NCBI GenBank assembly: GCA_026414705.1
Contig: JAOAIM010000003.1
Span: forward strand, 3,587 to 65,526
Source of the DNA: Verrucomicrobiia bacterium
GTDB taxonomy: Bacteria > Verrucomicrobiota > Verrucomicrobiia > Limisphaerales > JAOAIM01
Length of the DNA: 61,940 nucleotides
Reading direction: 5' to 3'
Shown here one piece after another: positions 14,984-56,416 of this stretch; position 1 is the stretch's first letter; every line of letters begins with the position of its first letter. The notes below the pieces were generated by a model that worked only from the letters and a program-made list of their open reading frames with translations, was not told where the DNA came from and searched no databases. Position numbers and translations under genes: made by a program.

Positions 14984-15029
14984 AGGAAACGACCTGCCAG
15001 CGCCCCGGGGAACGACTGCGCGCGAACGC

Positions 15030-15848: not shown

Positions 15849-15897
15849 GCCTCGTTCCCGTTCTCGGCGTCCCGTTCGTTGCCCCGGCACGGCGGCC

Positions 15898-39437: not shown

Positions 39438-39535
39438 GCCAGCGGGATTATCCAGCCGGACCTGCCCGATCAAACCGAATCGCACCGCCGCAAAACCCGT
39501 CACCCGCCCGGCGGCTCGTCCCCGACCCGCCCGCG

Positions 39536-40528
39536 TCACTTAACCGCTGGCTGCCCAGGGCGAAGCGTAACGGCGTGCGGGGGCGGCCCCGTTTCGCGGG
39601 CCGACGGCTCCGCGCCGGTCAGCAACCAGCGCAGGCAGGCGGCGTGTTCGTGGAATTTGGGGTCTGCGCTGCCATGCCAACGAATGCCCCGCCGCAGCGT
39701 CCGCGTCAAAAGCCGCAACCCGTGATACGTCAACGCGAAGAGAAAATATCCGCAGCGCCCGACCCGACCGTGGTGCTTTTCCCAGTAACGCAAATTCGCC
39801 CGCAGCATCTCGATGCTGTAACGCACCGGCGCGTTGCCGGAGCTGCCTCCGCCGAAATGCGTCACGCTCGCCTCCGGCCAGTATAGCACCTTCCAGCCTG
39901 CGTCCCGGAAGCGTTTGCACCAGTCCACGTCCTCGGCATAGAAGAAAAACCGCTCGTCCAACCCGCCCACCTGTTCGACCGCCGCGCGTCGCACCAGCCA
40001 GAAGCAACCGCTCAGCACGCCCACTTCACCCGCGCGCTCGTAATCCCAGTGCCGCATTTCCAGTCCGGCAAACCAACGCCAATGCCCCAAACACCGGTCG
40101 AGTGCAAACGCCCGGCAGAACAAATTCCAAAACGTTGGCACCACCGCGCAGGTGAACTGCACCCGCCCGTCACTGCCCAGCACCTTTGGTCCCGCCATCC
40201 CAACGTCCGGTCGCGCCTCCATGACCTGCGCCAGGCGCTCGAAGCAATGCGCGTGCACGACCACGTCGGAGTTGATCAGCGCCAGCACTGAACCGGTCGC
40301 GTGGCGCATCCCCAGGTTGTTGGCCCGCGCGAAGCCCAGGTTCGCGCCGGCGCGAATCAGGCGCACCTCCGGGAACAACCGCTCCACCATTTCCGGCGAG
40401 CCGTCGGTCGAGGCGTTGTCCACCACGATGACCTCCTGCACCAACGGGCCGCCGTGTGCGCGCAGCGAGTTGAGGCAGTTCTCCAAATGCCGCCGCGCGT
40501 TCCAACTGACGATAATGACCGAGATCAT
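39536..40528 (-). CDS. Family 2 glycosyltransferase (rhamnosyltransferase-like)
   Basis: A 330-residue GT2. The N-terminus MISVIIVSWNARRHLENCLN, the nucleotide-binding EVIVVDNASTDGSPEMVERL and LGFARANNLGMRHATGSVLA, and the acidic LALINSDVVVHAHCF (DxD equivalent) match the WbbL/rhamnosyl subgroup. Later it has GGLDERFFFYAEDVDWCKRF, where the ED-x-D is the proposed catalytic base region. The ATG at 40528 overlaps the polymerase stop by 4 bp. It probably transfers a deoxyhexose to the growing lipid-linked oligosaccharide; the exact sugar cannot be assigned. Confidence 0.85.
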   Translation of the reverse strand: MISVIIVSWNARRHLENCLNSLRAHGGPLVQEVIVVDNASTDGSPEMVERLFPEVRLIRAGANLGFARANNLGMRHATGSVLALINSDVVVHAHCFERLAQVMEARPDVGMAGPKVLGSDGRVQFTCAVVPTFWNLFCRAFALDRCLGHWRWFAGLEMRHWDYERAGEVGVLSGCFWLVRRAAVEQVGGLDERFFFYAEDVDWCKRFRDAGWKVLYWPEASVTHFGGGSSGNAPVRYSIEMLRANLRYWEKHHGRVGRCGYFLFALTYHGLRLLTRTLRRGIRWHGSADPKFHEHAACLRWLLTGAEPSARETGPPPHAVTLRPGQPAVK

Positions 40529-41859
40529 GGTTGGAGCGGGGAAGGCGCGGCCTGGACGGTGACCGAACCGGATGCGGGCGCGCTGGCCACCGCAGCCGTG
40601 GCCGGCCGCGTCGCCTTCATCGCGCGCAGCGAACCGATCGCCGCCAGCGCAAAATACAAATACACCACCGTCTGATCGAAATACGACACCGACAAGAACG
40701 TCATCGCGTGCCCGAACAGAATCGCCCCCAGGGTCCAGATCAGAAATCGCTCATGGACGGGGGCGGTGCGGTTGCGGCGCAGCGCACGGCCCACGGCCAC
40801 AAAGCCCGCCGCGATCACGCCCATGAACAGCAGCATCAACGGCAGTCCGCCCAGCACCCCCATTTGCAGGTAGTGGTTGGTAATGTCGGTGTGGTTGGCG
40901 CTCCAGTGCACGCCCGTCGGCATCCAGTGTCGCGTGTAATCGGTGCCCACCGCCCACCATTCGCCCAGGTGTTTGATGCTCGCCTCAATCAGCGCCGCGC
41001 GATGCCAACCGGTGCTGCTGCCGGTCAGGTCAATTCGCGCCAGCAGATAATACACGGGCGCCTGCATCACCAGACTCAGCGCCACGAGCATCGCCACCCC
41101 CGCCCAGCGAATCCATCGCATCCAGGTGCGCACCCACCAGAGCGCCAGGCCGCACAGAATCGTCAACGCCGTCAGGATCGGCCCGCTGGAACTGCTGGCA
41201 AAAACAATCACACCCGACGCCACCGCGCCCAGGACCGCCAGCGGACGATTCCGTCGCCAGAAAAAAATCGCCAGCGGCAGGCACGCCGCGCCGACCGTGC
41301 CCGCCAGGATCGGGTGGGCAAACGGTCCCTGGGCGCGGAACTGTCCGTTGCGAACGAGCACCTCCGAGGGCACGCCGCCCAGCACGGAGAACCAGTTGTA
41401 GCCGCGCGTTTTCTCCCACAACATCAGCAGCGCCAGCGGGGCCAGCACCAGAATCACCACTTTGCACAACTGCAGCAGCTCGCCCAGGTTGCGCATGAAC
41501 ACCCGCAGCAGGAAGTAAATCACCGCGTGGTCAAACACGTAGCCCATCCGGAAGATGAGCGTCCGCTCCACCTCCTTGTGAAACAACCCGCTCAGCACCA
41601 TCCATACGGCCCAGGCGGCCATCAGCGCGTCCATCGGCTGCCACCCCCCTGCGATGCGCTCGCCCTTCACCAGCACCCGCAGCAACCCCACAGCGGCCAT
41701 GATGCGAATGACCGTGAAATTCAGCCCGCCGATGTCCAGCGCCTGCCCCGGCGTCATGTAGGTCGCCGCGATCAGCAGTGGCAGCGGCGCCCACCGCCGC
41801 GGCAACCCCAACAACAACGCCACACACGTGGCGGTGAACAAAAAACCGATGAACGACAT
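40525..41859 (-). CDS. Wzy/O-antigen ligase-like membrane polymerase
   Basis: Polytopic membrane protein of 444 residues with about 10-11 hydrophobic segments. It has a large periplasmic loop between late segments (about residues 275-325: LTGSSTGWHRAALIEASIKH ... SANHTDITNHYLQMGVLGGL), the layout and H/R pattern of the Wzy_C/O-antigen ligase family. The sequence NHYLQMGVLGGLPLMLLF closely follows the consensus around the conserved histidine. It is the only such protein in the window, so it likely polymerises the repeat units flipped by Wzx. It starts 33 bp after the second AsnB gene and overlaps the next GT2. Polymerase and ligase cannot be separated from sequence alone. Confidence 0.82.
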   Translation of the reverse strand: MSFIGFLFTATCVALLLGLPRRWAPLPLLIAATYMTPGQALDIGGLNFTVIRIMAAVGLLRVLVKGERIAGGWQPMDALMAAWAVWMVLSGLFHKEVERTLIFRMGYVFDHAVIYFLLRVFMRNLGELLQLCKVVILVLAPLALLMLWEKTRGYNWFSVLGGVPSEVLVRNGQFRAQGPFAHPILAGTVGAACLPLAIFFWRRNRPLAVLGAVASGVIVFASSSSGPILTALTILCGLALWWVRTWMRWIRWAGVAMLVALSLVMQAPVYYLLARIDLTGSSTGWHRAALIEASIKHLGEWWAVGTDYTRHWMPTGVHWSANHTDITNHYLQMGVLGGLPLMLLFMGVIAAGFVAVGRALRRNRTAPVHERFLIWTLGAILFGHAMTFLSVSYFDQTVVYLYFALAAIGSLRAMKATRPATAAVASAPASGSVTVQAAPSPLQP

Positions 41860-41892: not shown

Positions 41893-43779
41893 TCAGCGCC
41901 GCTCAAACGCCCGAATCAACAGCTCCAGCGTCACCAGCGCGAACAGTTCCCGGCTCAAGTTCTCCCCGCGCGCGTTGCGCTCGAGCATGTCCTCCATCGT
42001 GCTGCGGCGGAACATTCCCCGCTCCAGGCTCTCGCGGCTCAACAACACCTCGCGCACGCGATCGCGCAATTCATGCCGCACCCAACGCTCAACGGGAATC
42101 GGAAAACCGGCCTTCTTGCGTTCGATGATCTCGCGCGGGATGTGCCGGCGAAAGGTTTCCTTGAGGATGCGTTTGGTGACGACGCCGCGCACCCGGTGCG
42201 CCTCCGGCAGGTTCAGCGCGAATTCGAGCACCTGGTGATCCAGCAGCGGCACCCGCAATTCCAGCGAGTTGCACATCGTCATCTTGTCGGCCTTCACCAG
42301 CAGGTCGTCCGGAAGCGAGGTCTTCAGGTCAATGTATTGCATCTGGTTGAGGGGCGACTCGCCCCGCACCCGGTTGAACAACGCGCGCACCACCTGCACC
42401 GACCGCTCGGCGTCCACCTGTTCGCCGAAGCCCGCCGTGTAAAGCGCCGCGCGGTTCTCCGCGAAGAAATCAAACGGCGAGGCCGCCCGACTGTAATAAT
42501 ACTCCTGCAGCGGACGGCGCAGATGCGGCGCAAACTGGCCGATCTTTTCCAGTCGCCCAAACCGTCCCGCCCCGGCCACCACCCGTGAAACCGCGCCCGC
42601 CAACGGCCCGACCGCCGCCTTGAACCGCTCCAGAAACATGAAGTTGCGATAGGTCAGATACCCGCCGAAGGCCTCATCCCCACCCTCGCCCGAAAGCAGC
42701 ACCTTGACGTAACCCCGCGCGAGCTTCGAGACGTAATGCAGCGAGACGGCCGGCGGATCATACACCGGCTCTTCCATGTGCCGGGCCAGCGTCGGCAGAA
42801 AGTCCCAAAAGTCGTCCGGCGTGATCGTGATTTCATGGTGGTCGGTGCCAAACTGCCGCGCCGCCAGCCGCGCATAAATCCGCTCATCCGCAAAATCCTC
42901 CTGTTCGAACCCCACCGTGAAGGTGCTGATGCGCTGGCCGGTTTCCTGCGCCGCGCAACTGAGCACCACCGTCGAATCCACCCCGCCGCTCAACAGGAAT
43001 CCCACCGGCACGTCGCTGATCATGTGATCGCGCACGGTGCGGCGGATCAGCGCGTGAAGCTGCTCGGAGGCCTCTTCAAAGCGCGGGCTGCCGTTGCGCC
43101 CGTGAAAGGGCAAATCCCAATACTGCCGCACGGTCAGTTGGCCGCCACGCACCAGCAGGTAATGCCCCGGCGGCAACTTCTGAATCCCCTTCCAGAGCGT
43201 GTCCCCTCCGGGCAAACACAGATGCGTGAGGAACAGGTCCACCGATTGCGGGTTGACCTCGCACCTCACCGCCGGGTCGGCCAGCAGCGCCTTGATCTCG
43301 GAGGCGAACAGCAACGCGCGGCCCGTGTTCACGTAGTAAAGCGGCTTGATCCCGACCCGGTCGCGCGCCAGCAACAACTGCTGGCGTTTCGCATCCCAGA
43401 GCGCAAAGGCAAACATGCCCCGCAACCGTTCCAGGCACTGCTCGCCAAACTCCTCGTAGAGATGAACGATCACCTCCGTGTCGGTGGTGCTGCGGAAGAC
43501 GTGGCCCCGGGCCATCAGTTCGGCGCGCAGTTCCGGGAAGTTGTAAACCTCGCCGTTGTACACCAGCCACACCGAGCGGTCCTCGTTGCACATGGGCTGG
43601 TCGCCCGTGCTCAGGTCAATGATCGCCAGGCGCGTGTGGCCCAACCCCACCGGGCCGTCGAGATACTTGCCGCGTCCGTCCGGCCCCCGGTGCGCCAGCG
43701 CCTCCATCATGCCCTCGATCAACGCCGGCTCCACGCGCGCCTCGCGTTCAAAGACCAGTTTGCCGCAAATCCCGCACAT
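41893..43779 (-). CDS. Asparagine-synthase-like glutamine amidotransferase (second copy of duplicated module)
   Basis: A 628-residue AsnB-family enzyme starting MCGICGKL (Cys2 nucleophile). The glutaminase domain has ALAHRGPDGRGK and VYNGEVYNFPEL; the synthetase domain has the PP-loop FLLSGGVDSTVVLSC and LSGEGGDEAFGGYLTY. Members in EPS loci are annotated as XrtA-associated or WbpG-like sugar amidotransferases and are thought to convert uronic acids to uronamides. It follows a GT2 gene by 43 bp; the same GT2-AsnB order is repeated immediately upstream at 44.9-47.8 kb. The two AsnB copies share length and layout but differ in sequence (SGGVDS here, SSGVDS there), so the duplication is old or the copies were acquired separately. 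Confidence 0.85.
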   Translation of the reverse strand: MCGICGKLVFEREARVEPALIEGMMEALAHRGPDGRGKYLDGPVGLGHTRLAIIDLSTGDQPMCNEDRSVWLVYNGEVYNFPELRAELMARGHVFRSTTDTEVIVHLYEEFGEQCLERLRGMFAFALWDAKRQQLLLARDRVGIKPLYYVNTGRALLFASEIKALLADPAVRCEVNPQSVDLFLTHLCLPGGDTLWKGIQKLPPGHYLLVRGGQLTVRQYWDLPFHGRNGSPRFEEASEQLHALIRRTVRDHMISDVPVGFLLSGGVDSTVVLSCAAQETGQRISTFTVGFEQEDFADERIYARLAARQFGTDHHEITITPDDFWDFLPTLARHMEEPVYDPPAVSLHYVSKLARGYVKVLLSGEGGDEAFGGYLTYRNFMFLERFKAAVGPLAGAVSRVVAGAGRFGRLEKIGQFAPHLRRPLQEYYYSRAASPFDFFAENRAALYTAGFGEQVDAERSVQVVRALFNRVRGESPLNQMQYIDLKTSLPDDLLVKADKMTMCNSLELRVPLLDHQVLEFALNLPEAHRVRGVVTKRILKETFRRHIPREIIERKKAGFPIPVERWVRHELRDRVREVLLSRESLERGMFRRSTMEDMLERNARGENLSRELFALVTLELLIRAFERR

Positions 43780-43822
43780 CGGTTCGTTCCCCGTGAATCC
43801 GGCCGTCCGCCGTTGGGCCGGC

Positions 43823-44704
43823 TCAGGACCGCCAGAGGCTGTCGCGCCCCAGCAGCCGGTTCATTTGCTGACGCTGGAAGTAACGGATCAGTTCCGGATC
43901 ACCCACGCGCGGCATTCGCTTGAGCCAGGCCTTGGTGTAACCGGCCCACAAGGCGCAGCCGCCGATGATGTAGGGCTTGTCGGCGAGCCGGCGAATGCAC
44001 TTCAGGAACATGAACAGCGGATGGTAGCCGGCGATGTAGTTGGCGACACCGCCCTTGGCCATGTCGTTCCAGGACCCGTAGGCGGCGCCGGTGGGGCGAT
44101 GATGAATGGCGTTGATGCCCTCCAGCGTGCGCGTGCGCCAACCGAGCATGTTGGCCTTCACTTCGTCCACCGTGTCCCAGCCCGGGGCGCGGATCAGCCC
44201 GCCAATCGCCCGCCAGCACTCGGCCCGATAAATCTTGGTGGCCCCGCGCACGTGGAAGGTGGGATCAATTTTCGACTCCTCCTGCGGCACGCCGTCGCGC
44301 AGGCTGCAAATCGTCCCCCCGGCGATCCCCAGGCGCGGGTCGGCCGCAAATGCCTGGAAACACCGCTCGAAATAATTCGGCTCAAACGACAGGTCACCAT
44401 CGAGCTTGACCAGAAACTCCCACGGTTCCTTCTCCACAAGTTTGTACCCGTCGTAGAACGCCTCCATCACCCCGCTGCCGGCCTGACGAAAGCCCCGGTC
44501 GGAGCGGTGCACCACGCGAATCCAGGAATGCGTCCGGGCCGCTTCTTCGGCGAGGGCGCCGGTCTTGTCCCGCGAACCATCGTTGACGATGATCCACATC
44601 GTGGGCCGAATCGTCTGCGCCACCACGGAGCGAATCGTCAGGGGCAGGAACTCCGCCTCGTTGCGAACCGGCGTGATGATCACGTAGTTCAGAGCGCGCT
44701 TCAT
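43823..44704 (-). CDS. Family 2 glycosyltransferase (second copy of GT2-AsnB module)
   Basis: A 293-residue GT2 with N-terminal NYVIITPVRNEAEFLPLTIR, MWIIVNDGSRDKTGALAEEA and the DxD-type motif FLVKLDGDLSFEPNYFERCF. It is followed by the acceptor-site-like IYRAECWRAIGGLIRAPGWD and by TVDEVKANMLGWRTRTL. It is similar throughout its first half to the GT2 at 46811-47764 (ITPxxNExxFxxxTIxSVxxQTIRP). It is separated from the upstream AsnB gene by 178 bp, one of the larger gaps in the locus, in which I see no clear signal. Each GT2-AsnB pair could add and then amidate one uronic-acid residue; that is inference. Confidence 0.85.
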   Translation of the reverse strand: MKRALNYVIITPVRNEAEFLPLTIRSVVAQTIRPTMWIIVNDGSRDKTGALAEEAARTHSWIRVVHRSDRGFRQAGSGVMEAFYDGYKLVEKEPWEFLVKLDGDLSFEPNYFERCFQAFAADPRLGIAGGTICSLRDGVPQEESKIDPTFHVRGATKIYRAECWRAIGGLIRAPGWDTVDEVKANMLGWRTRTLEGINAIHHRPTGAAYGSWNDMAKGGVANYIAGYHPLFMFLKCIRRLADKPYIIGGCALWAGYTKAWLKRMPRVGDPELIRYFQRQQMNRLLGRDSLWRS

Positions 44705-44882
44705 ATCTCGGCTGCCTTGCTGAGAATTGAGCTGTTGACCTCCGGGCGAGCTTGGTCCTGCAAGCCGTTACAGTTCGCCACCGCGCGAGTCCAACCCTGG
44801 CATCAGCCAGCAGCCCGGCCTGCGTGCCGGTGTTCGGGGATCGGGACGTTCGATTTGCATTCGCGGCAGGCTCAACCGCCGC

Positions 44883-46796
44883 TCAGATCAGACCCGGAAT
44901 CGCGGCACTGACAATCCACTGAACCCGCAAAAACGCGCGATGCCACAGCTCCACCGAAACCAGCAGATGAATGTGGCGATGGAGTTGCTCGCGCCCGGAG
45001 CGGTCCAGGTCCAAAATCTCCCGCAGGCACTGGCGGTTGAAATAGCGTCCCAGAAACGAATCCCGGCTCAACAGGCAATCCTCGACAAAGGTGCGCATCC
45101 GCACCCGAAACCACTTTTCCAGCGGGTTGTCGAAGCCCTTCTTTTTGCGGCGGATCACGGCGTCGGGCAGCCATTTGCGGCAGGCGCACTTGTGCAGGTA
45201 TTTGCCCGTCAAGCCCTTGAGCTTGAGCCGCGGCGGCAGGCTTTCGATGAATTCCACCAACCGGTAGTCCAGAAACGGCACCCGCAGTTCCAGCGAGTTG
45301 GCCATCGAGGTTTTGTCCCCCACCATCAACAGGTCGTCCGGCAGGCTCGTGCGCGTGTCTATGTAGAGCATCTGCGTGAGCGGATCGCGCTCCCGGACAT
45401 CCACCTGCCATCGCTCCAGCGCCCGCCGCGCAAGGTGCGGCTCGGCCTCAAACCGCTGCTTCAATTCACCCTGAAAGAGCCGCGCCTTCATGTCCGTGCT
45501 GATAAACGAGTACACCTTCAAAAAGCGCGTCACCAACTCCGGCTCGCCCAGCGACATCAACCCGCGTTTCAACCGTTCCATCCGGCCCGGAACATGCACC
45601 GCCAGCCGCGCCAGCGCCTCGGTCAACGGCCGCGGCAGACGGCTGTAGAAACGCGACAACTTGATCCCCTTGTAGCGGTCGTAACCGGCCCAGGGCTCAT
45701 CCGCACCCTGCCCCGTCAACGCCACTTTCACGTGCCGACCGGCGATCTGGGACACGAAGTGAAACGCGGGCGCCGCCTCGTGGGCCACCGGCTCCTCGAT
45801 GTCCCGCATGTAGCGGTCAAAATACTTCACGTAGTCCTCCGGGCCCACCATGAGGCTGTGATGCTCCGCTCCAAACCGCCGCGCCAGCTCGCGCGCATCG
45901 TCTATCTCGTTGCAATGTTCCCCCTCCTCGAAACCGATCGTGAAAGTTTGCACCGGCCCGGCGCTGTGACGACTCATGATCGCCAGCAACGCGCCCGAAT
46001 CCACCCCCGAACTCAAAAACAATCCCAGCGGCACGTCGCTGCGCATTTGCAGCCGCACCGCATCCTCCAGCAACGCCTGATACTCTTCCACCAGCGCCGA
46101 TTCGCTCCCGTTGCGCGAGTGGCCCGGCACCCAGTCCCAAAACCGGCTCATCCGCTGCCCGCGCGCCGAAACCACCATCCGGTGCGCCGGCGGCAGCTTG
46201 AAAATGTGGCGGAAAAGCGTCTTGGGCGACGGCACGCAGCGAAACGTGAACAGCTCAATCAACGCATCCAGGTCCACCTCTCGCGGGCACTGCGCGTCCT
46301 GCAACAACGCCTTGATCTCCGAGGCAAACAGCAACCGATCCCCCACCCGCGCATAGTATAGCGGTTTGATGCCCAGGTGATCTCGCGCCATGAACAGTTC
46401 CCGATGCCGTCCGTCCCAGAGCGCAAACGCGAACATCCCGTTGAACCGCCGCACGCAATCCTCGCCCCACTGCTCATACGCGTGAACAATCACCTCCGTG
46501 TCGCACTGGGTCTTGAAAACGTGCCCGAAACTCTCCAGCTCCCGCCGCAGTTCGATGTAATTGTAAATCTCTCCATTGAAGACCACCGTGATCCGACCGT
46601 CCTCGTTGGACAGGGGTTGCGCCCCGCCGGCCACGTCAATGATGCTCAAGCGCCGGTGCCCCAAACCAATCTCACCGTCCAAAAACCGGCCCTGGCCGTC
46701 CGGCCCCCGATGCTGGAGCGCCGCCGTCATCCGGTCCACCAGCACCGGCTCGACCGGGCGACCGTCCAGATTAAACACGCCGCAAATGCCGCACAT
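44883..46796 (-). CDS. Asparagine-synthase-like glutamine amidotransferase (first copy of duplicated module)
   Basis: A 637-residue AsnB-family protein, MCGICGVF with Cys2 intact, ALQHRGPDGQGR and FNGEIYNYIEL in the glutaminase half. The PP-loop reads GLFLSSGVDSGALLAI, with Ser for the usual second Gly of SGGxDS, and LTGQGADEPWAGYDRY replaces the usual GEGADE, so the synthetase substrate site departs from true asparagine synthetases. The C-terminus has the basic, aromatic layout (RKWLPDAVIRRKKKGFDNPL) found in glycan-locus homologues. It starts 14 bp after a GT2 gene. Likely glutamine-dependent amidation of a uronic acid or acyl group; activity on free aspartate is unlikely but not excluded. 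Confidence 0.84.
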   Translation of the reverse strand: MCGICGVFNLDGRPVEPVLVDRMTAALQHRGPDGQGRFLDGEIGLGHRRLSIIDVAGGAQPLSNEDGRITVVFNGEIYNYIELRRELESFGHVFKTQCDTEVIVHAYEQWGEDCVRRFNGMFAFALWDGRHRELFMARDHLGIKPLYYARVGDRLLFASEIKALLQDAQCPREVDLDALIELFTFRCVPSPKTLFRHIFKLPPAHRMVVSARGQRMSRFWDWVPGHSRNGSESALVEEYQALLEDAVRLQMRSDVPLGLFLSSGVDSGALLAIMSRHSAGPVQTFTIGFEEGEHCNEIDDARELARRFGAEHHSLMVGPEDYVKYFDRYMRDIEEPVAHEAAPAFHFVSQIAGRHVKVALTGQGADEPWAGYDRYKGIKLSRFYSRLPRPLTEALARLAVHVPGRMERLKRGLMSLGEPELVTRFLKVYSFISTDMKARLFQGELKQRFEAEPHLARRALERWQVDVRERDPLTQMLYIDTRTSLPDDLLMVGDKTSMANSLELRVPFLDYRLVEFIESLPPRLKLKGLTGKYLHKCACRKWLPDAVIRRKKKGFDNPLEKWFRVRMRTFVEDCLLSRDSFLGRYFNRQCLREILDLDRSGREQLHRHIHLLVSVELWHRAFLRVQWIVSAAIPGLI

Positions 46797-46810
46797 CTGA
46801 CGTAACCTGT

Positions 46811-47764
46811 TCAGCGTTCCGGGCTGACCGCCCCACCCCGCCCCACCACTGCCACTCTCGAATCGGCCACAAGCCGATCCGAAAAACGCGCCACGCCGCT
46901 TGAACGCGACAACAACCCTTTCATCTTGGCCCGCTGTTCAGCCTGCAAATAACGCACCACCTCACCCGGTAACACGACCGGCTCGCCCCGCAATTTCGCC
47001 CTCAGATACCCGCACAACGCCGCCGCACTCCCCACCAACCACGGACGCTCCGTCACCCGATACGCGCAGCGGAAAAGAAAAAACCAGAAGCCGTAACCGA
47101 GCGACTGCATCCGCCGCCCTTCCTGGTAGCGGCCCACCAGCGGATGCGCCTTCGCCGTGCCCGTTCGCCGTTGCTCCCGCACCCGATACTCCGGAAACGT
47201 TCGCACCCGCCAACCCTGCATCCGCGCCATGACCTCCGCCGCCGTGTCAATCCCCCCGTGCGGCAACTCCCGGTAACCACCCACAGCCTCGAAACATCGC
47301 CGCCGAAACAGTTGCACCGCCCCGGCCACGCTGTCCAACGAAACCCGCTGCGACTCGTAACGTTCCCCAACCCGGCTCTCCACCATCCCGCCAGCCAGCC
47401 CCAGCATCGGATCCTTCTCAAACTCGCCCAAAACTTTCTCGAAATAATCCTCCGCCAGCACAATGTCCGCGTCCAGATTCCCGACAAACTCAAACTCCAG
47501 GTGTCGCACCCGCTCCCATCCCTGGCCAAACGCCCGTGCCTTGTGCCCAAAATCCCGCCCACCGGACCGGGCCACGTGCAGGCATTCGATGAACGGGTGG
47601 CCCGCTGCCAGTCGCCGGATGATTTCGCCGGTCCGATCCGTCGAGCCGTCGTTGACGATCACCCATCGCTCCGGCCGAATCGTCTGCCGCAGCACCGAGG
47701 CGATCGTGTCGGCGATGAACGCCTCCTCGTTGTGCGCGGGCGTGATGAGAACGTAACGGCTCAC
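46811..47764 (-). CDS. Family 2 glycosyltransferase (first copy of GT2-AsnB module)
   Basis: A 317-residue GT2 using a GTG start at 47764 (VSRYVLITPAHNEEAFIADT). Motifs are RWVIVNDGSTDRTGEIIRRL, FVGNLDADIVLAEDYFEKVL (DxD) and LFRRRCFEAVGGYRELPHGG with an acidic segment IDTAAEVMARMQGWRVRTFP. The arrangement matches processive-type GT2s with a membrane-proximal C-terminus. It lies 31 bp after the wecB-like gene and 14 bp before AsnB. Likely adds the sugar made by the WecB/WbpI-like epimerase or its product; this is a positional inference. Confidence 0.84.
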   Translation of the reverse strand: MSRYVLITPAHNEEAFIADTIASVLRQTIRPERWVIVNDGSTDRTGEIIRRLAAGHPFIECLHVARSGGRDFGHKARAFGQGWERVRHLEFEFVGNLDADIVLAEDYFEKVLGEFEKDPMLGLAGGMVESRVGERYESQRVSLDSVAGAVQLFRRRCFEAVGGYRELPHGGIDTAAEVMARMQGWRVRTFPEYRVREQRRTGTAKAHPLVGRYQEGRRMQSLGYGFWFFLFRCAYRVTERPWLVGSAAALCGYLRAKLRGEPVVLPGEVVRYLQAEQRAKMKGLLSRSSGVARFSDRLVADSRVAVVGRGGAVSPER

Positions 47765-47795: not shown

Positions 47796-48998
47796 TCAAC
47801 TGCGCTTCAACAGCGCTGTCACCACTCGTTGCGCGGTGTGCCCGTCCCAGAGCGGCGGCACCGTGCCAAACCGCCGTTCCCGTCGGAGCACCGCTTCCAG
47901 GTCCGACAGCAGGCGGCGCGCATCGGTGAGCTGGTTGCTGCCCAGCGTCACCGTCACGGGTCGTTCGGTGTTCGGACGCAACGTCAGGCACGGCGTGCGG
48001 AAAAACGTGCTCTCCTCCTGCAACCCGCCCGAATCGGTCAACACCAGCCGCGCGTTCTCCGTCAGGCACAGCGAATCGTGATAACCGATCGGTTCGAGCA
48101 CCTTCAGCCCGGGCTGCTGTTCCAGTTCGATGCCAAACTCCGCGCATCGTTTGCGCGTGCGCGGATGCATCGGGAACACCACCGCCAACCGTCGCGCCAG
48201 GACCTTGAGTTGATCCAAAATCGTTCGCAGGCTCGCTTCGTCATCCACGTTGGCCGGCCGATGCAACGTCACGTAAACAAATTCTCCCGCGCGCAGGTTG
48301 AGACGTTCCAGAATCCGGCTCTGGCGCGCCTGCGGCAGATTCGCCAGCAGCGCGTCAATCATGATGTTGCCCACACACACGATCTTGTCCTCCGGCACGC
48401 CCTCACGTCGGAGGTTTTCGTTCGCGTCCTCCGAGGGCGTCAGCAGCAGGTCCGCCAGCGCGTCGGTCACGATGCGATTGATCTCCTCCGGCATCGTGCG
48501 GTCGAAACTGCGCAGGCCCGCCTCCACGTGCGCGACGCGGATGCCCATCTTGGCGCACACCAGCGTGCAGGCCATCGTCGAATTCACATCGCCCACCACC
48601 ACCACCCAGTCGGGCTTTTCCTGCTCGCACACGGCTTCAAAGGCCGTCATGACCCGCGCCGTTTGCACCGCGTGCGAGCCGGAGCCGACGCCCAGGTTGA
48701 TGTCCGGGGGGCGAATCCCCAGCTCGCGGAAAAACACCTCCGACATCGCCTCGTCGTAATGCTGCCCGGTGTGCACCAGCCGGGCGTCGAATCGCGCCCG
48801 CCCGTCGTCGCGGGCCGTATTGTGCGCTTCGATCGCTTTCATCAGCGGCGCCACTTTCATGAAATTCGGTCGCGCCCCGGCAATCACCAGCACCCGGATC
48901 GGGCGAACCGACGTGTCGGGCGCGCGCGCGGCCCGTCCGGTGCCCGATGCAGCGGGGGTCAACACCGTGTGAATTCGAGGAGCAGACAACGTGTGCAT
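47796..48998 (-). CDS. wecB: UDP-N-acetylglucosamine 2-epimerase family (WecB/WbpI-like)
   Basis: Cytoplasmic non-hydrolysing epimerase of 400 residues from the ATG at 48998. Family signatures are IRVLVIAGARPNFMKVAPLM, LVHTGQHYDEAMSEVFFREL, VVVGDVNSTMACTLVCAKMG, RVAHVEAGLRSFDRTMPEE and DSGGLQEESTFFRTPCLTLR. WecB makes UDP-ManNAc; WbpI makes UDP-ManNAc(3NAc)A from UDP-GlcNAc(3NAc)A, and the two cannot be told apart by motif. The presence of WbpA-, WbpB- and WbpD-like genes in the locus supports the WbpI role. The upstream in-frame extension overlaps the fusion gene and is Arg/Ser-rich, so I rejected it. The gap to the fusion gene is 19 bp. Confidence 0.87.
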   Translation of the reverse strand: MHTLSAPRIHTVLTPAASGTGRAARAPDTSVRPIRVLVIAGARPNFMKVAPLMKAIEAHNTARDDGRARFDARLVHTGQHYDEAMSEVFFRELGIRPPDINLGVGSGSHAVQTARVMTAFEAVCEQEKPDWVVVVGDVNSTMACTLVCAKMGIRVAHVEAGLRSFDRTMPEEINRIVTDALADLLLTPSEDANENLRREGVPEDKIVCVGNIMIDALLANLPQARQSRILERLNLRAGEFVYVTLHRPANVDDEASLRTILDQLKVLARRLAVVFPMHPRTRKRCAEFGIELEQQPGLKVLEPIGYHDSLCLTENARLVLTDSGGLQEESTFFRTPCLTLRPNTERPVTVTLGSNQLTDARRLLSDLEAVLRRERRFGTVPPLWDGHTAQRVVTALLKRS

Positions 48999-49017
48999 GG
49001 GAATCGAGTTGGGTGGC

Positions 49018-51087
49018 TCAGTGGCCGTTGCCGTATTCGATGCGGATGATCTCTTCGATGTGATTGACGATGTCGTCGAGCGCCGGGCGCGGCTGGCGAT
49101 TCGGTCCGCCGCGCTTGTCGCGCGGCACCAGGCGGATTTTCGTGTGCACATCCTCGGGCGTGCGAACGAGCACCAGGCGGCCCTCCGCTTCGAGTCGCCG
49201 ATCCACCGCGCCGATTTTGCCCCGGAAAATGCTGTAAACCGGCACGCCCAGCGCCGCGGCTTCCCGGTTCATCGTCCCGCCGCCGCTCACCACCAGGTCG
49301 GAAAACCACACCAGGTTCATCCCGTCCACGGCCCGCGCCGGCACCACCGTCTTGTCGCCGGCAAACCACTCCGGATGCGCCGCGCGCAACCGCTGCTCCT
49401 GTGCCCGATTGCGCGGCAACAGCACCACGCGCGCGCCCTCGGTCGCGCACAACCGCTCCATGAGCACTTGCAGCAGCCGCTCGGCCTCCGGGTTGTGATA
49501 ATGCGCCTCATCAGCGGGCGGACGCACCGTGACAATGAGCGTTGCGCCGCGCAGCCCCAGTTCATCGAGCAGCCGTTCGTCGGGCTGAAATTCCGGCGCG
49601 TAAACGTCCTCCTTGATGCCGCGATACTGGCGCACCCGGCCCGGCGCGCCGCCGGACTCGGCTTCCGAAATCGAGTCGGGCACGATCACCCAGCGCGGCG
49701 GGGCCAACGGCACCATTGCCGAGTGCTCATAGTCGTTCATCGAAACGGTCGGAATCCCCAGCGCGCGGCCGAGCAGCTCCTTGGAGCGCGAGCCGTGCGA
49801 AAGGGCCAGTTGCGGTTTCTCGGCGAAACACACCGGCGTCAACTGCAACGAGCGCCACAGCAGCCCCAGGGCCTTGAGCAGGCGGTTTCGCCCGTAATGC
49901 CGCCCGATGCGCCGGCACGGCAGGCCTTTTTGCTCGGCCAGTTCGCAAACCTGAAAGGCGTCGCGCGCGGTCAAAACCACCTGGTGACCCCGCCGCTCCA
50001 GTTCGCGCACGATCGGAACGAACAACGGCACGTGCGGCGTGTTGTCCAGGTCAATCCAGATTTTCACCCGGGGCGTGCCGTTTCGGCCCGGCGCGCCGTT
50101 GCCGGCGCCCGCGCTCGCCAATCCCGGCGCCGTGATCGTGCCGCGCGTCCCCGGATGCTCCGGTTTGAATCGCGCGCAGTATTCTGCGACCTCGCAGGGC
50201 AGCGCATGCCAGCAACGGTCGCCGTATTTCGAGCGCACGTAATCGAGCAGTTCGGCATACCACGCAGCGGGGAATTCAAAGGCCGTGGCGTCGCCCCGCT
50301 CGAAGTTGAGGTAATCGGGATGGACGTTCAAAAGCGCCAGCCCACCGTGTTCGGCCACCCAGTCGAGTTTGCGTTTCCAAAGTTCAATCGTCCGCTCGCG
50401 CAGGAACAAAAACAGCGTCGAGTCCTGCGCCAACGTGTAGGGCATTTCGATGAAGCCCTCCGCGCCGTTGCCGTTGGCCCCGACCCAGAACGGAAAAATG
50501 GTGCCGACTCCTTCGGGCTGCGGCTCAAACGGGTCCACGTCGAACGTGGAAAGGTCGTAGCGAATGCGCAGCGCCTGCTGCCATTCGAGATTGTGGAACA
50601 TGAAACCGGCGCGGAACCCCACCGCGCCCCAGGCATCGAGGTAGCGGTTGATGCGCGGCGCCTGCGCCCGGAAAGTTTCGCGGCTGCGGAACAACGAGCC
50701 GTCGTGATGCAAATCGTGCACACCGACCTCAAAGCCGCGCGAAATCAGTTCCGCGCGCAACGCATCCGGCACGCGGTATTCGCCCTCCGGCACAAAGTTG
50801 AACGAGGAACGAAACCCCCGCTGCGCCTCCAACTCCATGAGCTGCCGGCAGCGTTCCAGGCCGCGCGTGCCCTCGACGTCATGGGTGAGCACGAAAGCAA
50901 ATTGGCGTCGTTCCGGCCAACCGGGCCAGTTGGGCGGTGGCGTCTCGCTGCCGGGCAGAATCGGCCAGATGTCGCGGCTGCGGGCAAACTTGCGTCGCAC
51001 GTCCACCCGCCGCAGCGCGTAGCGCACGTGCCGGGGTAGCCACGGTTTCAGCACGTAGTAACAGCGTTGGAGCAGACTTGAAGGCAT
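49018..51087 (-). CDS. Fusion of polysaccharide deacetylase-like domain and DUF354 (glycosyltransferase-like) domain
   Basis: A 689-residue two-domain protein. Residues about 60-320 resemble a NodB/polysaccharide deacetylase fold: FAFVLTHDVEGTRGLERCRQ with the metal Asp, GFEVGVHDLHHDGSLF with the His pair, then STFDVDPFEPQPEGVGTIFP. From residue 340 (RVKIWIDLDNTPHVPLFVPI) to the end is a complete DUF354/COG1817 domain of GT-B type, with SHGSRSKELLGRALGIPTVS and DLVVSGGGTMNREAAALGVP. A Gly/Ala-rich linker (LASAGAGNGAPGRNGTPRV) joins them. Normally these are separate proteins. No signal peptide is visible, so it is probably cytoplasmic and may deacetylate a lipid-linked amino sugar and then transfer to it. 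Start ATG 51087. Confidence 0.82.
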   Translation of the reverse strand: MPSSLLQRCYYVLKPWLPRHVRYALRRVDVRRKFARSRDIWPILPGSETPPPNWPGWPERRQFAFVLTHDVEGTRGLERCRQLMELEAQRGFRSSFNFVPEGEYRVPDALRAELISRGFEVGVHDLHHDGSLFRSRETFRAQAPRINRYLDAWGAVGFRAGFMFHNLEWQQALRIRYDLSTFDVDPFEPQPEGVGTIFPFWVGANGNGAEGFIEMPYTLAQDSTLFLFLRERTIELWKRKLDWVAEHGGLALLNVHPDYLNFERGDATAFEFPAAWYAELLDYVRSKYGDRCWHALPCEVAEYCARFKPEHPGTRGTITAPGLASAGAGNGAPGRNGTPRVKIWIDLDNTPHVPLFVPIVRELERRGHQVVLTARDAFQVCELAEQKGLPCRRIGRHYGRNRLLKALGLLWRSLQLTPVCFAEKPQLALSHGSRSKELLGRALGIPTVSMNDYEHSAMVPLAPPRWVIVPDSISEAESGGAPGRVRQYRGIKEDVYAPEFQPDERLLDELGLRGATLIVTVRPPADEAHYHNPEAERLLQVLMERLCATEGARVVLLPRNRAQEQRLRAAHPEWFAGDKTVVPARAVDGMNLVWFSDLVVSGGGTMNREAAALGVPVYSIFRGKIGAVDRRLEAEGRLVLVRTPEDVHTKIRLVPRDKRGGPNRQPRPALDDIVNHIEEIIRIEYGNGH

Positions 51088-51220: not shown

Positions 51221-53485
51221 TCAGGCATCCGGTAACAGCTCCTGATACAGACCGCGCGGGATGTAAGAGCGCACCTTGTTGAGCACCGTGCTCACGTTGG
51301 CCCGCGTGCGCGCGAGCATCGCGTTGGCCCGTTCCACGGCCTCCAAATGCGTTTTCTCGGATTCCAGCACCAACAGCACCGAGTCCATCAACCCGGCCAT
51401 CCGCACCGTGACGCTGGTCTGGCTGACCGGCGGCATGTCAAAGACGATGTAATCGTAGTCACTGGCGCGCAACCGGGGCATCAAGCCCGCGACGGTCTGG
51501 GCCACGACGGCCGGCAGGTGGGCTGCCGTGCCCCCGTTGGACTCGGCCGTCTTGTTACCGTCGGCCACGCCGCCCGGGGCGCCCCCCGTCTGCGGACTCA
51601 AAGCGATCTCGGGCGCATTGCCGGGTTTGCCCCGATGAAATGCAAACGCGCGCGTCTGTTCCTCTTTGGCCTCCACCAGCAGCACGTTCCCGGCCCCCGT
51701 CTCCGAGAGAGCGCGCGCCAGGCCGCGCGCCAGACTGCTCACCCCGGCCCCGCGACCGCAACTGGTCAGTGCGATGAGCTTGGGCTTGTGCCCGATGTTT
51801 TTGACCTCAAAGTCCACCAGCAACTGATCGCGCAACCCCTGGCAGTAACGGCGCAACGGGTCTTCCGGGTCCCAAAGCGCCAGCGCCATCGTGCCGCCGG
51901 GCGTCCCGCTGCTGCTCGATTCCGGCGCGGCGTTCGGCGACGCCCCGCCCCCGGGTGAGGAGCGGGGCGACTGCGGCTTGCGCTGCCCGTTCCAGCGCAC
52001 GTCCGGAATGGCCATCAGCAGTGGCAGTTGAAGACGTTTTTCAACATCGGCAGGACGCTTGACGGAGCGGTCCACGACGAATTCCAAAAGGAACGCCAGC
52101 GCAAAACCGCAGAAGACGCAACCGCCGGTGAGCATCGCCAGCTTCTTGAGGAAATTTTTCGACCACATTTTGCGCGGCACCGTGGGCGATTGAATGATGC
52201 TGATGTTGGGCGCCTTGCCCGAACCGAGCGCGGCTTCGATTCGCGCCTGTTCGACCGCCGCCGCATACCGTTTGAGGTCGGCCTCGATCAACTCCTTCTT
52301 CCGCTGCAGGTCCACGATGGTGGCTTCCATCTCATCGGCTCTGGCGACCTCGGCCTGCACCTCGGCCAGGTGATTGGACAGCACCTGAATTTTGGACTCC
52401 AGAGCGCGCACCTGAACCGAGGCCGTCGCCGGGTCGAACGCGGTGGGTTGGCCGCCGACGGGTGGGGTGGTCGTCGCCACGCCGAGCAGCGCCGGAAAAT
52501 CCTCCTCGAGTTTCTGCTTGCGCGCCTGCACCTCGGCGATCTGGGCGCGCACCGCTTTGACGTAGAGGCTCTCCTCGGTGAACTGCAACAGAAGGTTTTG
52601 TTCGTTGGTGGCAAGCTGGTCGAGCCGCGCACAAAGTCGCCGATACTCCGCGAGCCGTTCGCGCGGCACGGCACTCAGATTGGTGGATGCGGCGTTGGTT
52701 TCACTGCGAATCGCGCCCCGGCCCATTTCGGCCAGGATGGCCTGCTGCGCCGCCAGGTCGGCCTGAGCCTTGATCAATTCCTCGCGGATGGTCGCAATTT
52801 GCTCGGCGTAGGCCTTTCGGGAGTCTTCCAGCGAGCCGACCCCGGCCTGCTTGCGCGCCTCGGCAAGTTTTTGCTCGGTCTCCGCCAGTTCTTTTTGCAA
52901 ACGGTCGGTTTCCTTGACGAACATCTGGGTGAACTCCGCCGTCGGCAGGTGCATCTCGGCGTGCTTCTTGAGGTAGGCGTTGATGACCTGCCGAAGAATT
53001 TCCTGAGCGAGCGCCGGGTCCGGATGCCGGAACAGGATCGGCAGCACGCTGCGCCGCGAGATGGGTTCGACAACGAGGTTGCGCTGCACCAGGTTGGCGG
53101 CGCTGCCCGGATCGTTGCCGCCCCCCACCGGTGCCAAAATCCGCTCGGCGCCGATCACCCGCACCACTTCTTCGGCCACGTCGAGACTGCGCAGGATGTC
53201 AATCTCGGTGTTGATGATGCTGTCGTCGGCCTCGTTGAGCACCCGCACGGGCACTTCGACGCCCTGGGGTGTGGGCGTGCGGCTCTCGGCGACGTAGCGG
53301 ATGAAAATCTTCGCCTCCGAATAAAACTGCGGCGGCTTGACGACGAACAACAACAGCCCCGCGGCCAGCGCCGCCAGCGCAATGAAGCCCAGAATGATCC
53401 ATTTGCGCCGGAACAGGACGAAGTAGATGCGGTCCAGGGAAATCGTCGCTCTGGCCTGTTCTTCGATGTCGGGTTCGCCGCTCAT
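51221..53485 (-). CDS. Wzc-like polysaccharide co-polymerase with degenerate BY-kinase/ParA-type ATP site
   Basis: A 754-residue chain-length/co-polymerase protein. Wzz domain with TM1 (KWIILGFIALAALAAGLLLF, about residues 28-50), a long periplasmic coiled coil (about 185-415: FVKETDRLQKELAETEQKLA), TM2 near 440-460 (LTGGCVFCGFALAFLLEFVV) and a cytoplasmic ATPase-like domain. The Walker A position reads SCGRGAGVSSLARGLA, with Val582 where Lys is expected. Walker A' reads NVLLVEAKEE, with Glu605 for the usual Asp. Walker B DYDYIVFDMPPVSQ is intact. The C-terminus (RSYIPRGLYQELLPDA) is not a Tyr cluster. Wzz function is likely kept, with catalytic kinase activity probably lost. It follows a 128-bp gap after the acetyltransferase gene. 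Confidence 0.85.
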   Translation of the reverse strand: MSGEPDIEEQARATISLDRIYFVLFRRKWIILGFIALAALAAGLLLFVVKPPQFYSEAKIFIRYVAESRTPTPQGVEVPVRVLNEADDSIINTEIDILRSLDVAEEVVRVIGAERILAPVGGGNDPGSAANLVQRNLVVEPISRRSVLPILFRHPDPALAQEILRQVINAYLKKHAEMHLPTAEFTQMFVKETDRLQKELAETEQKLAEARKQAGVGSLEDSRKAYAEQIATIREELIKAQADLAAQQAILAEMGRGAIRSETNAASTNLSAVPRERLAEYRRLCARLDQLATNEQNLLLQFTEESLYVKAVRAQIAEVQARKQKLEEDFPALLGVATTTPPVGGQPTAFDPATASVQVRALESKIQVLSNHLAEVQAEVARADEMEATIVDLQRKKELIEADLKRYAAAVEQARIEAALGSGKAPNISIIQSPTVPRKMWSKNFLKKLAMLTGGCVFCGFALAFLLEFVVDRSVKRPADVEKRLQLPLLMAIPDVRWNGQRKPQSPRSSPGGGASPNAAPESSSSGTPGGTMALALWDPEDPLRRYCQGLRDQLLVDFEVKNIGHKPKLIALTSCGRGAGVSSLARGLARALSETGAGNVLLVEAKEEQTRAFAFHRGKPGNAPEIALSPQTGGAPGGVADGNKTAESNGGTAAHLPAVVAQTVAGLMPRLRASDYDYIVFDMPPVSQTSVTVRMAGLMDSVLLVLESEKTHLEAVERANAMLARTRANVSTVLNKVRSYIPRGLYQELLPDA

Positions 53486-53613: not shown

Positions 53614-54111
53614 TCAGCGGCCGGGCGGAAGCCACTTGATGATGCGGGCCGGGTTGCCCGCCACCACGGCGCCGGGCGGCACGTCTTTGGTGACCACGCT
53701 GCCCGCGCCCACGAGCGCGTTCTCGCCAATCGTCACCCCGCACAGGATGGTCGCGCCCGAACCAATCGAAGCGCCCCGTTTGACCACGGTGGGAATGCAC
53801 TCCCAGTCGGCCTCGGTCTGCAGGCGGCCGTCCCCGTTGGTCGCGCGCGGATACCGGTCGTTGATGAAGGTGACGTTGTGTCCGATGAACACGTCGTCTT
53901 CCACGGTCACTCCTTCGCAGATGAAGGTGTGACTGGAAATCTTGCATCGGTTGCCGATTTTGACGCCCTTTTGAATCTCGACAAACGTGCCGATCTTCAC
54001 GTCGTCGCCGATCTCGCAACCGTAGAGATTGGTGAAGTCGTAGATGCGAACGTTGCGGCCCAGCCGCACGTCCGGCGCAATGCGTTGAAAGCGCAGTTCG
54101 GCGGCACTCAT
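53614..54111 (-). CDS. wbpD: WbpD-like hexapeptide N-acetyltransferase
   Basis: A compact 165-residue left-handed beta-helix enzyme, the usual length for WbpD/WlbB. The hexapeptide rungs [39 protein letters not shown] and [19 protein letters not shown] and the acceptor-side [20 protein letters not shown] are well preserved. Known WbpD N-acetylates UDP-GlcNAc(3NH2)A to UDP-GlcNAc(3NAc)A with acetyl-CoA. Its start overlaps the stop of the WbpB-like oxidoreductase by 4 bp, reproducing the wbpB-wbpD adjacency of Pseudomonas and Bordetella loci. Family assignment strong; a longer relative is encoded at 26.3 kb. Confidence 0.87.
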
Positions 54112-55280
54112 GGCGTCACTCGCGCCCGCGGGCGCACCGACGGCTTGATCGCGCGGCGGGCGCGGCCCCGGGCCTTCGCCCGGCCGTTGCGCGCGCTGCC
54201 GTTTTTGACCACCAGCCGCACGGCGATGCGTCCGTTGGCCGCCGGTTGGCCGTTGACGCGGAAGGGCAACTCGACCGGACTGCCGCCGCGACGCAACGAT
54301 TCCGAGGAGGCTTCCAGAATCTCGACCAGTTGCCGGCCCTGCTCACCGTCGGACAACGGTTTGGCGCCGGTGCGAATGCAGTCCAGGAAATGCTGGCACT
54401 CCACCTTGAGCGGCTCCTCCTGCTTCAGGTAGGGGATGTAAACGTCGCCGTAGTGGTAGGCATAGTGGAACTCGCCAAACGTGTCGTAGTGCGGCGGCCG
54501 TTCCACGCGGGCGTCGAAGATGCGGATTTTCTCCAGCGGCGCCACGTCGTCGTAAACGATCATCCGGCGGCTGCCCACGATCGTCATCTCGCGCACCTTT
54601 CGCGGATCGAGCCAACTGCTCTGGATGATCGCCGTTTGTTGTTTGGGAAACGTCAGGCACATGGTCGTCACGTCCTCGATGCCCGGGGTCACGTGCGACA
54701 TGCCGCGGCAGTTCACGGCAGTGGGCTGCTGGCCGATGATGTATTGGATGATCGAGATGTCATGCGGCGCGAGGTCCCACGCGACGTTGATGTCCTTCTG
54801 GAACAGTCCCAGGTTGAGCCGACGCGCCGAGATGTAGCGGATTTCGCCCAGGTCACCCGAGTCGACGATCTCTTTGATGCGCCGCACCGCCGGCGAATAC
54901 AGAAACGTGTGGCCAACCATGAGGATCAAACCGTTCTTGCGCGCCAGCTCGATCAACTCGGTGCATTCGGCCACGGACGTGGCCATGGGCTTCTCAATGA
55001 AGGTGTGTTTGCCCGCCAGCAAACTCGCGCGCGCCATCGGGTAATGCAACCGCACCGAGGTCGCAATCGCCACCGCGTCCAGGTCCGGACGCGCCAGCAT
55101 CCGCTCAAACTGCGTCTCGGCCTCAACCTCCGGGTAAAGCTTCTTGAGGTGCGCGAGCCGCTCCTCGTTGACGTCGCACATCACCCGCAACTGACAATCC
55201 GGCAGCGTGCGGAAATTTCGGATCAGGTTCGGTCCCCAATACCCGCACCCGACCACCCCCACTCCAATCGGTTTGTTCAT
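54108..55280 (-). CDS. wbpB: Gfo/Idh/MocA sugar-nucleotide 3-dehydrogenase (WbpB/WlbA-like)
   Basis: A 390-residue oxidoreductase. The ATG at 55280 ([20 protein letters not shown]) follows a textbook AGGAGG. NAD-binding motif [15 protein letters not shown] (residues 8-22), then [20 protein letters not shown] with the EKP motif, [20 protein letters not shown] and [20 protein letters not shown], with the catalytic D-x-x-x-H element, match WbpB/WlbA-type enzymes that oxidise UDP-GlcNAcA at C3. The C-terminal tail is basic ([18 protein letters not shown]), about 35 residues longer than usual. It begins 22 bp after the sugar transferase and is coupled to the WbpD-like gene by a 4-bp overlap. Confidence 0.84.
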
Positions 55281-55302
55281 GGTTGTGTTCCTCCTTGGTG
55301 TT

Positions 55303-56241: not shown

Positions 56242-56303
56242 GACTCGTTTGCTCCTGGAGCGGCTTGTCGCGGTTCGATTCTCGACAATGCTCCGCACTT
56301 GCA

Positions 56304-56323
56304 GGCGGGAACTGTTTCCCGCC
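56304..56323 (-). promoter_or_regulatory. Perfect hairpin in the leader between antiterminator and sugar transferase (hairpin 2)
   Basis: GGCGGGAA at 56304-56311 and TTCCCGCC at 56316-56323 form a perfect 8-bp stem with a 4-base loop. On the minus-strand transcript the stem is not followed by a U-run, so it is not a simple terminator. It lies about 60 bases upstream of the GTG of the sugar transferase gene. It could be an RNA element recognised by a LoaP/RfaH-like protein. Confidence 0.4.
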
Positions 56324-56416
56324 CGATTTTCATCTCGGCCCCGGCCCGGCCCCCACACGCCTGTGTTCGGGGCGGACGCCAGGGGACTGCCTGGCTCTGC
56401 AGTCTCAATGCTTTTC

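What the first reader, a model, noticed from the sequence alone, without database searches (positions are those of the whole stretch)
41893..47764. Tandem duplicated GT2 + asparagine-synthase-like module
Order in transcription is GT2, AsnB, GT2, AsnB (46811-47764, 44883-46796, 43823-44704, 41893-43779). The two GT2 genes share the same N-terminal layout (ITPxxNE, xQTIRP, xIVNDGS) and the two AsnB genes share length and architecture. The copies differ at key places (SSGVDS and LTGQGADE in one, SGGVDS and LSGEGGDE in the other), which suggests divergence to different substrates. A parsimonious reading is that each pair adds and amidates one uronic acid residue.
Basis: partly seen in the sequence, partly recalled or inferred. 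Interest (0 to 1): 0.6.

Follow-up and report, generated by a model that had tools for sequence, protein, structure and literature searches.

The report
Two stacked glycan-amidation cassettes, not duplication
A bacterium of the Verrucomicrobiota carries, side by side in one surface-sugar gene cluster, two look-alike pairs of genes that probably each add a sugar and turn an acid group into an amide; the pairs are not copies of each other but two long-separated gene cassettes brought together, one of them probably swapped in from another lineage.

Summary
The four genes exist as described: GT2-A, AsnB-A, GT2-B, AsnB-B, minus strand, catalytic residues in place. The interpretation "tandem duplicated module" is wrong for this lineage. 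The GT2s are 37% identical and the AsnBs 42%; each has closer relatives in other families of the order: A in G024 (62/72%), B in G014 (71/67%). The B pair even occurs in an acidobacterium (51/51%). Trees with the window's own two genes as sisters are rejected (AU p = 2e-9 GT2, 5e-44 AsnB). An ancient common origin of clades A and B is neither shown nor excluded. Some genomes carry only A, some only B; the two others with both AsnBs have an unrelated GT2 between them. The window is a mosaic of a G024-like and a G014-like part, and rpoB disagrees with the B grouping. The motif differences are old clade signatures. Uronamide formation is plausible: the nearest glycan-linked family, TIGR03108, holds the experimentally supported uronamide enzymes WbpS/WbqG, and the window holds homologues of the Wbp pathway to diacetamido-uronic acids. 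"One residue per pair" is untested. A third AsnB in the window was missed. Ordinary modular evolution of a polysaccharide locus.

The parts
46811..47764 (-). GT2-A: family-2 glycosyltransferase, 317 aa (ITPAHNEE, NDGS, DAD motif)
   Evidence: closest relatives G024 62%, G070 51%; clade 100/99*
44883..46796 (-). AsnB-A: class-II glutamine amidotransferase/synthetase, 637 aa; SSGVDS, LTGQGADE (Gln at the E. coli E348 / human E364 position)
   Evidence: orthologues G024 72%, G070 62%, G040 59%
44705..44882 (.). 178-bp gap between the A and B cassettes, much longer than the other gaps inside the block (14, 43, 33 bp); proposed cassette junction; no similarity to relatives found
43823..44704 (-). 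GT2-B: family-2 glycosyltransferase, 293 aa (ITPVRNEA, NDGS, DGD motif)
   Evidence: closest relative G014 71%, others 54-59%; clade 100/98* with G014
41893..43779 (-). AsnB-B: class-II glutamine amidotransferase/synthetase, 628 aa; SGGVDS, LSGEGGDE (Glu kept)
   Evidence: closest relative G014 67%; clade 100/100*
40525..41859 (-). Wzy-like polymerase/O-antigen ligase-like membrane protein directly downstream (just under the Pfam cut-off)
   Evidence: Wzy_C 31.1 against 31.7 bits; G014 57%
39536..40528 (-). GT2-C: a third glycosyltransferase, not close to A or B
   Evidence: G014 63%
47796..48899 (-). non-hydrolysing UDP-sugar 2-epimerase; best solved match is UDP-2,3-diacetamido-2,3-dideoxy-glucuronate 2-epimerase (WbpI type); homology begins about residue 85 of the ORF 47796-49151
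   Evidence: TIGR00236 over cut-off; 8sxv, E 8e-96
49018..51087 (-). one ORF with an N half similar to a protein conserved in relatives' loci (polysaccharide-deacetylase-like, named by inference, no Pfam match) and a DUF354 C half
51221..53485 (-). Wzc-like chain-length determinant/tyrosine kinase
53614..54111 (-). hexapeptide N-acetyltransferase (WbpD/WlbB type possible)
   Evidence: 3mqg lipopolysaccharide acetyltransferase, E 5e-28
54108..55328 (-). Gfo/Idh/MocA dehydrogenase (WbpB/WlbA or UDP-GlcNAc 3-dehydrogenase type)
   Evidence: (NF040723, E 4e-57, below cut-off)
55303..56358 (-). initiating sugar-1-phosphate transferase (Bac_transf)
8566..9690 (-). DegT/DnrJ aminotransferase (WbpE type possible)
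   Evidence: WbpE 3nyu, E 2e-87; other sugar aminotransferases such as QdtB score higher
5555..6871 (-). nucleotide-sugar 6-dehydrogenase of the UDP-HexNAc class: the uronic-acid-making step
   Evidence: TIGR03026 over cut-off; Cap5O 3ojl, E 7e-67
6914..8560 (-). Wzx-like flippase
11439..13442 (-). AsnB-C: third amidotransferase of the window, a separate clade, between a NAD-synthase-like and an AMP-ligase gene

Best explanation
The block is two independent GT2-AsnB cassettes stacked inside a Wzx/Wzy-type exopolysaccharide locus of a Limisphaerales (Verrucomicrobiota) metagenome-assembled genome. Each cassette belongs to its own old subfamily, spread over several families of the order and, for B, into Acidobacteriota. 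The downstream part (GT2-B, AsnB-B, Wzy, GT2-C) was most likely exchanged laterally as a block and now sits behind a GT2-A/AsnB-A pair; the junction is probably the 178-bp gap. Function (inferred): the AsnB proteins hydrolyse glutamine at Cys1, channel ammonia, adenylate a carboxyl group and convert it to an amide, the acceptor most likely being the C6 carboxyl of a uronic acid (probably a Wbp-type 2,3-diacetamido-uronic acid) of the repeat unit. The neighbouring GT2s add residues to the lipid-linked repeat. Shown: genes, motifs, trees, synteny. Inferred: acceptor, timing, and which GT2 serves which AsnB.
For: Own pairs as sisters rejected (AU p 1.9e-9 GT2; 5e-44 AsnB). A and B clades each hold orthologues from other families. 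GT2-B/AsnB-B also occur as an adjacent pair in a Sulfotelmatobacter contig at 51%/51%. A-only (G070), B-only (G014, G158, G050, G055, G091) and A+B (G024, G040) loci occupy the same slot between Wzc/DUF354 and Wzy. Mosaic identities: G024 for GT2A/AsnBA (62/72%), G014 for GT2B/AsnBB/Wzy/GT2C (71/67/57/63%). rpoB rejects G000+G014 (p 0.0016), while AsnB-B groups them at 100/100 and rejects G000 as the outgroup (p 0.005). Function: best glycan-linked family is TIGR03108 (E 6e-171 and 4e-166), which holds WbpS, WbqG and PGN_1234; deleting PGN_1234 abolishes the uronamide (PMC7468200). Homologues of all Wbp steps lie in the window. A Sphingomonas exopolysaccharide cluster in which insertions change colony morphology holds the same set: dehydrogenase, exosortase-associated amidotransferase, aminotransferase, acetyltransferase, MviM dehydrogenase (PMC11340318). 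Catalytic residues intact.
Against: Both AsnBs fall below the TIGR03108 cut-off (570 and 554 against 817 bits), while TIGR01536 (asparagine synthase) is met. No WbpS or WbqG sequence was in hand to place on the tree. AsnB-B keeps the Glu of true asparagine synthetases. A deep common origin of A and B is not excluded (p 0.30 and 0.20). rpoB does not clearly reject G000+G024 (p 0.050), so the A part may be vertical. rpoB is a single gene with a weak backbone. The glycan is unknown.
Confidence: 0.62

Rival explanations
1. Recent tandem duplication of one GT2-AsnB module in this lineage, then divergence.
For: Same order GT2-AsnB-GT2-AsnB; homologous GT2s and AsnBs.
Against: Own-pair sister trees rejected; closer relatives of each copy lie in other families and another phylum; in G024 and G040 the GT2 between the two AsnBs is an unrelated subfamily.
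Confidence: 0.02
2. Ancient duplication: one GT2-AsnB cassette duplicated before the families of the order diverged, and both copies were kept side by side by descent with many losses.
For: A and B clades as sisters are not rejected; the best AsnB tree joins the A superclade and B at 84/57; three families carry AsnB-A next to AsnB-B.
Against: Needs loss of A or B in almost all of the 196 sampled genomes; the middle GT2 differs between the three tandem loci; AsnB-B relationships disagree with rpoB; the cassette is found outside the phylum.
Confidence: 0.25
3. One or both AsnBs are plain asparagine synthetases, or act on a non-uronic carboxyl such as an amino acid or acyl group on the glycan.
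For: TIGR01536 cut-off met; AsnB-B keeps Glu at the ASNS E364 position; the nearest solved structure is a hydroxyamidotransferase (7ylz), so acceptors vary in the family.
Against: The orthologues found lie inside exopolysaccharide loci next to GT2s; AsnB-A has Gln where E364Q inactivates human ASNS (PMC6748925); uronate-pathway genes in the locus.
Confidence: 0.3

Closest known systems
WbpS / WbqG / PGN_1234 uronamide-forming amidotransferases (TIGR03108, eps_aminotran_1)
   Same: Two-domain Cys1-glutaminase plus PP-loop synthetase of about 630 aa in a polysaccharide locus with Wbp-type genes; TIGR03108 is the best glycan-related model.
   Different: Below the TIGR03108 cut-off; two of them in tandem, each behind a GT2; AsnB-A carries Gln and a bona fide TIGR03108 member from Vibrio carries Asp at the E348 position.
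Sphingomonas exopolysaccharide cluster with exosortase-associated amidotransferase (PMC11340318)
   Same: Nucleotide-sugar dehydrogenase, aminotransferase, WxcM acetyltransferase, MviM dehydrogenase, amidotransferase, Wzy and Wzc in one cluster.
   Different: One such amidotransferase in the insertion list, and different glycosyltransferases (GT4).
Asparagine synthetase B (E. coli AsnB, TIGR01536)
   Same: Domain layout, catalytic Cys1, R49, N74-E76, D98, D351, K449 conserved.
   Different: Polysaccharide-locus context; AsnB-A has Gln at E348; about 75-85 residues longer.

Membership tests
Tandem duplication (recent, in this lineage) | The two copies are each other's closest relatives | tested here: not met
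   AU p 1.9e-9 (GT2), 5e-44 (AsnB)
Tandem duplication (recent, in this lineage) | Motif differences arose after the duplication | tested here: not met
   Gln at E348 in all 13 members of the A superclade, Glu in all 9 members of the B clade
TIGR03108 / WbpS uronamide synthase | Score over the family cut-off (816.9 bits) | tested here: not met
   570.2 (A) and 554.4 (B) bits
TIGR03108 / WbpS uronamide synthase | Intact glutaminase and PP-loop synthetase sites | tested here: met
TIGR03108 / WbpS uronamide synthase | Locus context able to make a nucleotide-activated uronic acid | tested here: met
   nucleotide-sugar dehydrogenase 5555-6871 and WbpI-type epimerase; substrates not proven
TIGR03108 / WbpS uronamide synthase | Product is a uronamide | not testable with these tools
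   needs biochemistry or glycan analysis
Asparagine synthetase (TIGR01536) | Score over the family cut-off (267.1 bits) | tested here: met
   500.8 (A) and 509.3 (B); the model is broad and AsnB-C passes too
Asparagine synthetase (TIGR01536) | Glu at E. coli E348 / human E364, needed for activity with aspartate | tested here: inconclusive
   Gln in AsnB-A (not met), Glu in AsnB-B (met); E364Q inactive in human ASNS, PMC6748925
GT2 glycosyltransferase | PF00535 over cut-off, NDGS and DxD motifs | tested here: met

The most novel reading that the evidence does not exclude
GT2-AsnB pairs are exchangeable 'add and amidate' cassettes that bacteria stack in polysaccharide loci to tune the number of uronamide residues; and the A superclade, with Gln in place of the catalytically required Glu of asparagine synthetase, is a biochemically distinct amidotransferase class acting on a glycan precursor.
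Probability: 0.15. Interest if true: 0.45.

Novelty: new member of a known kind. Interest (0 to 1): 0.22.

Why it matters
It corrects a duplication reading: similar gene pairs side by side in a polysaccharide locus can be separate cassettes assembled by exchange. It points to amidated, charge-neutralised uronic acids in Verrucomicrobiota surface glycans, and offers a natural E-to-Q variant for studying acceptor choice in the asparagine-synthetase family. Otherwise it fits known modular evolution of such loci.

Tried and rejected
Recent tandem duplication: rejected by AU tests. Deep sister relation of A and B: could be neither shown nor rejected. Relics of the GT2 found between the AsnBs of G024/G040 in the 178-bp gap: none. 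Promoters at the junction: none found; terminator-like sites close to the shuffled expectation. A WbqG reference from an E. coli O121 record was sought and given up. A literature search for modular Verrucomicrobia polysaccharide loci found nothing. rpoB of G069 and G099 was dropped because their extracted sequences did not align (about 23% to all others).
Full report
What is there. The GT2s share 37% identity (E 6e-55) and the AsnBs 42% (E 1e-165). Gaps between genes are 14, 178, 43 and, to the Wzy-like gene, 33 bp (from coordinates). All glutaminase and synthetase residues examined are present in both AsnBs, apart from the E348 position in AsnB-A, and both GT2s keep NDGS and DxD.

Where it lies. 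The window is contig C324 of a 3.94-Mb, 390-contig genome, about 90% complete. Contigs of order-mates G010 and G040 match by length records titled Limisphaerales and Verrucomicrobia, so the order is most likely Limisphaerales (inference). [quoted passage not shown] The genome has two exosortases and 17 PEP-CTERM matches.

Duplication or not. In 196 genomes of the order the best relative of GT2-A is in G024 (62%) and of GT2-B in G014 (71%), while the window's own pair is 37-38%. The AsnBs behave alike: G024 72% and G014 67% against 42-44% between themselves. In trees each window gene sits in its own starred clade with members from other families. Forcing the window's own two genes together costs 255 (GT2) and 438 (AsnB) log-likelihood units and is rejected. 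The GT2-B/AsnB-B pair also stands adjacent in a Candidatus Sulfotelmatobacter contig, at 51% and 51%: the B pair is closer to an acidobacterial pair than to its neighbour. Whether clades A and B as wholes are sisters cannot be decided.

How the block was assembled. In the same slot, G070 has only A, G014 and G158 only GT2-B/AsnB-B, and G050/G055/G091 have GT2-B, another GT2, then AsnB-B. G024 and G040 have both AsnBs, but with a GT2 between them that shows no BLAST similarity (E 1e-5) to A or B. So in this sample the arrangement with two related GT2s is peculiar to the window. Identities make the window a mosaic: GT2A/AsnBA nearest G024; GT2B, AsnBB, Wzy and GT2C nearest G014. On rpoB the window's genome is about equally far from all (82-85%), G000+G014 is rejected (p 0.0016) and G000+G024 is borderline (p 0.050); on AsnB-B, G000+G014 has 100/100. 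Lateral exchange of the B part is the simplest reading; for A it is open. The 178-bp gap between the cassettes fits a junction, but no scar or homology was found in it.

What the motif differences mean. SSGVDS/SSGIDS is confined, among the proteins compared, to the four AsnB-A orthologues and a distant AsnB of the same genome. The Gln of LTGQGADE is at the E. coli E348 / human E364 position and is present in all 13 members of the A superclade; all nine B-clade members have Glu; a bona fide TIGR03108 protein from Vibrio has Asp. E364Q human ASNS is inactive with aspartate (PMC6748925), which argues against AsnB-A being a plain asparagine synthetase. The differences are old and clade-wide.

Function. 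The best glycan-linked model for both is TIGR03108 (E 6e-171 and 4e-166), below its cut-off. That family holds WbpS, WbqG and PGN_1234; deletion of PGN_1234 abolished the uronamide form of a Wbp-pathway sugar, and WbqG is reported as needed for uronamide formation in E. coli O121 (PMC7468200). The window has homologues of every Wbp step: UDP-HexNAc-class dehydrogenase, MviM dehydrogenase, DegT aminotransferase, hexapeptide acetyltransferase and an epimerase whose best solved match is UDP-2,3-diacetamido-glucuronate 2-epimerase. In Sphingomonas the same set plus an exosortase-associated amidotransferase was hit in a screen for exopolysaccharide-dependent colony morphology (PMC11340318). The most likely acceptor is therefore a uronic acid of the repeat unit, possibly a 2,3-diacetamido-uronic acid. 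The individual Wbp assignments are family-level: the dehydrogenase and aminotransferase have other close families, and the MviM and hexapeptide genes occur also in loci without AsnB. 'Each pair adds and amidates one residue' is a hypothesis; GT2-B without AsnB-B and AsnB-B behind another GT2 show that the GT2 and AsnB partners are not obligate.

Verdict. Observation right, duplication wrong, amidation plausible, stoichiometry untested. A well-resolved but ordinary case of cassette assembly in a polysaccharide locus.

Noticed in passing
11439-13442 (-), with 10397-11434, 13442-15106, 15030-15890: A third AsnB (own clade, orthologues in at least six other genomes) between a NAD-synthase-like protein and an AMP-forming ligase near TIGR03098 (exosortase-associated), beside a GNAT-like ORF: another amide or acyl tailoring module of the same locus.
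   Followed up: partly
49018-51087 (-): One 689-aa ORF joins a deacetylase-like half and a DUF354 half that occur singly in most relatives.
   Followed up: no
29411-32773, 34963-37008, 37005-39539 (-): Three large secreted-looking proteins (one with a Pfam beta-helix, one with a PKD domain) inside the polysaccharide locus, with counterparts in relatives' loci.
   Followed up: no
L067:6225-7244, L088:6038-7261, L104:8403-9539, L111:8227-9351: A GT2 subfamily without detectable similarity to GT2-A/B occupies the place before AsnB-B in other genomes.
   Followed up: partly
G000:C356 (L004, L092): A further, distant AsnB (37-39%) elsewhere in the genome, with SSGVDS and Leu at the E348 position.
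   Followed up: no
15898-26325 (-): A 3475-aa repeat-rich secreted-looking protein lies in the middle of the polysaccharide locus.
   Followed up: no
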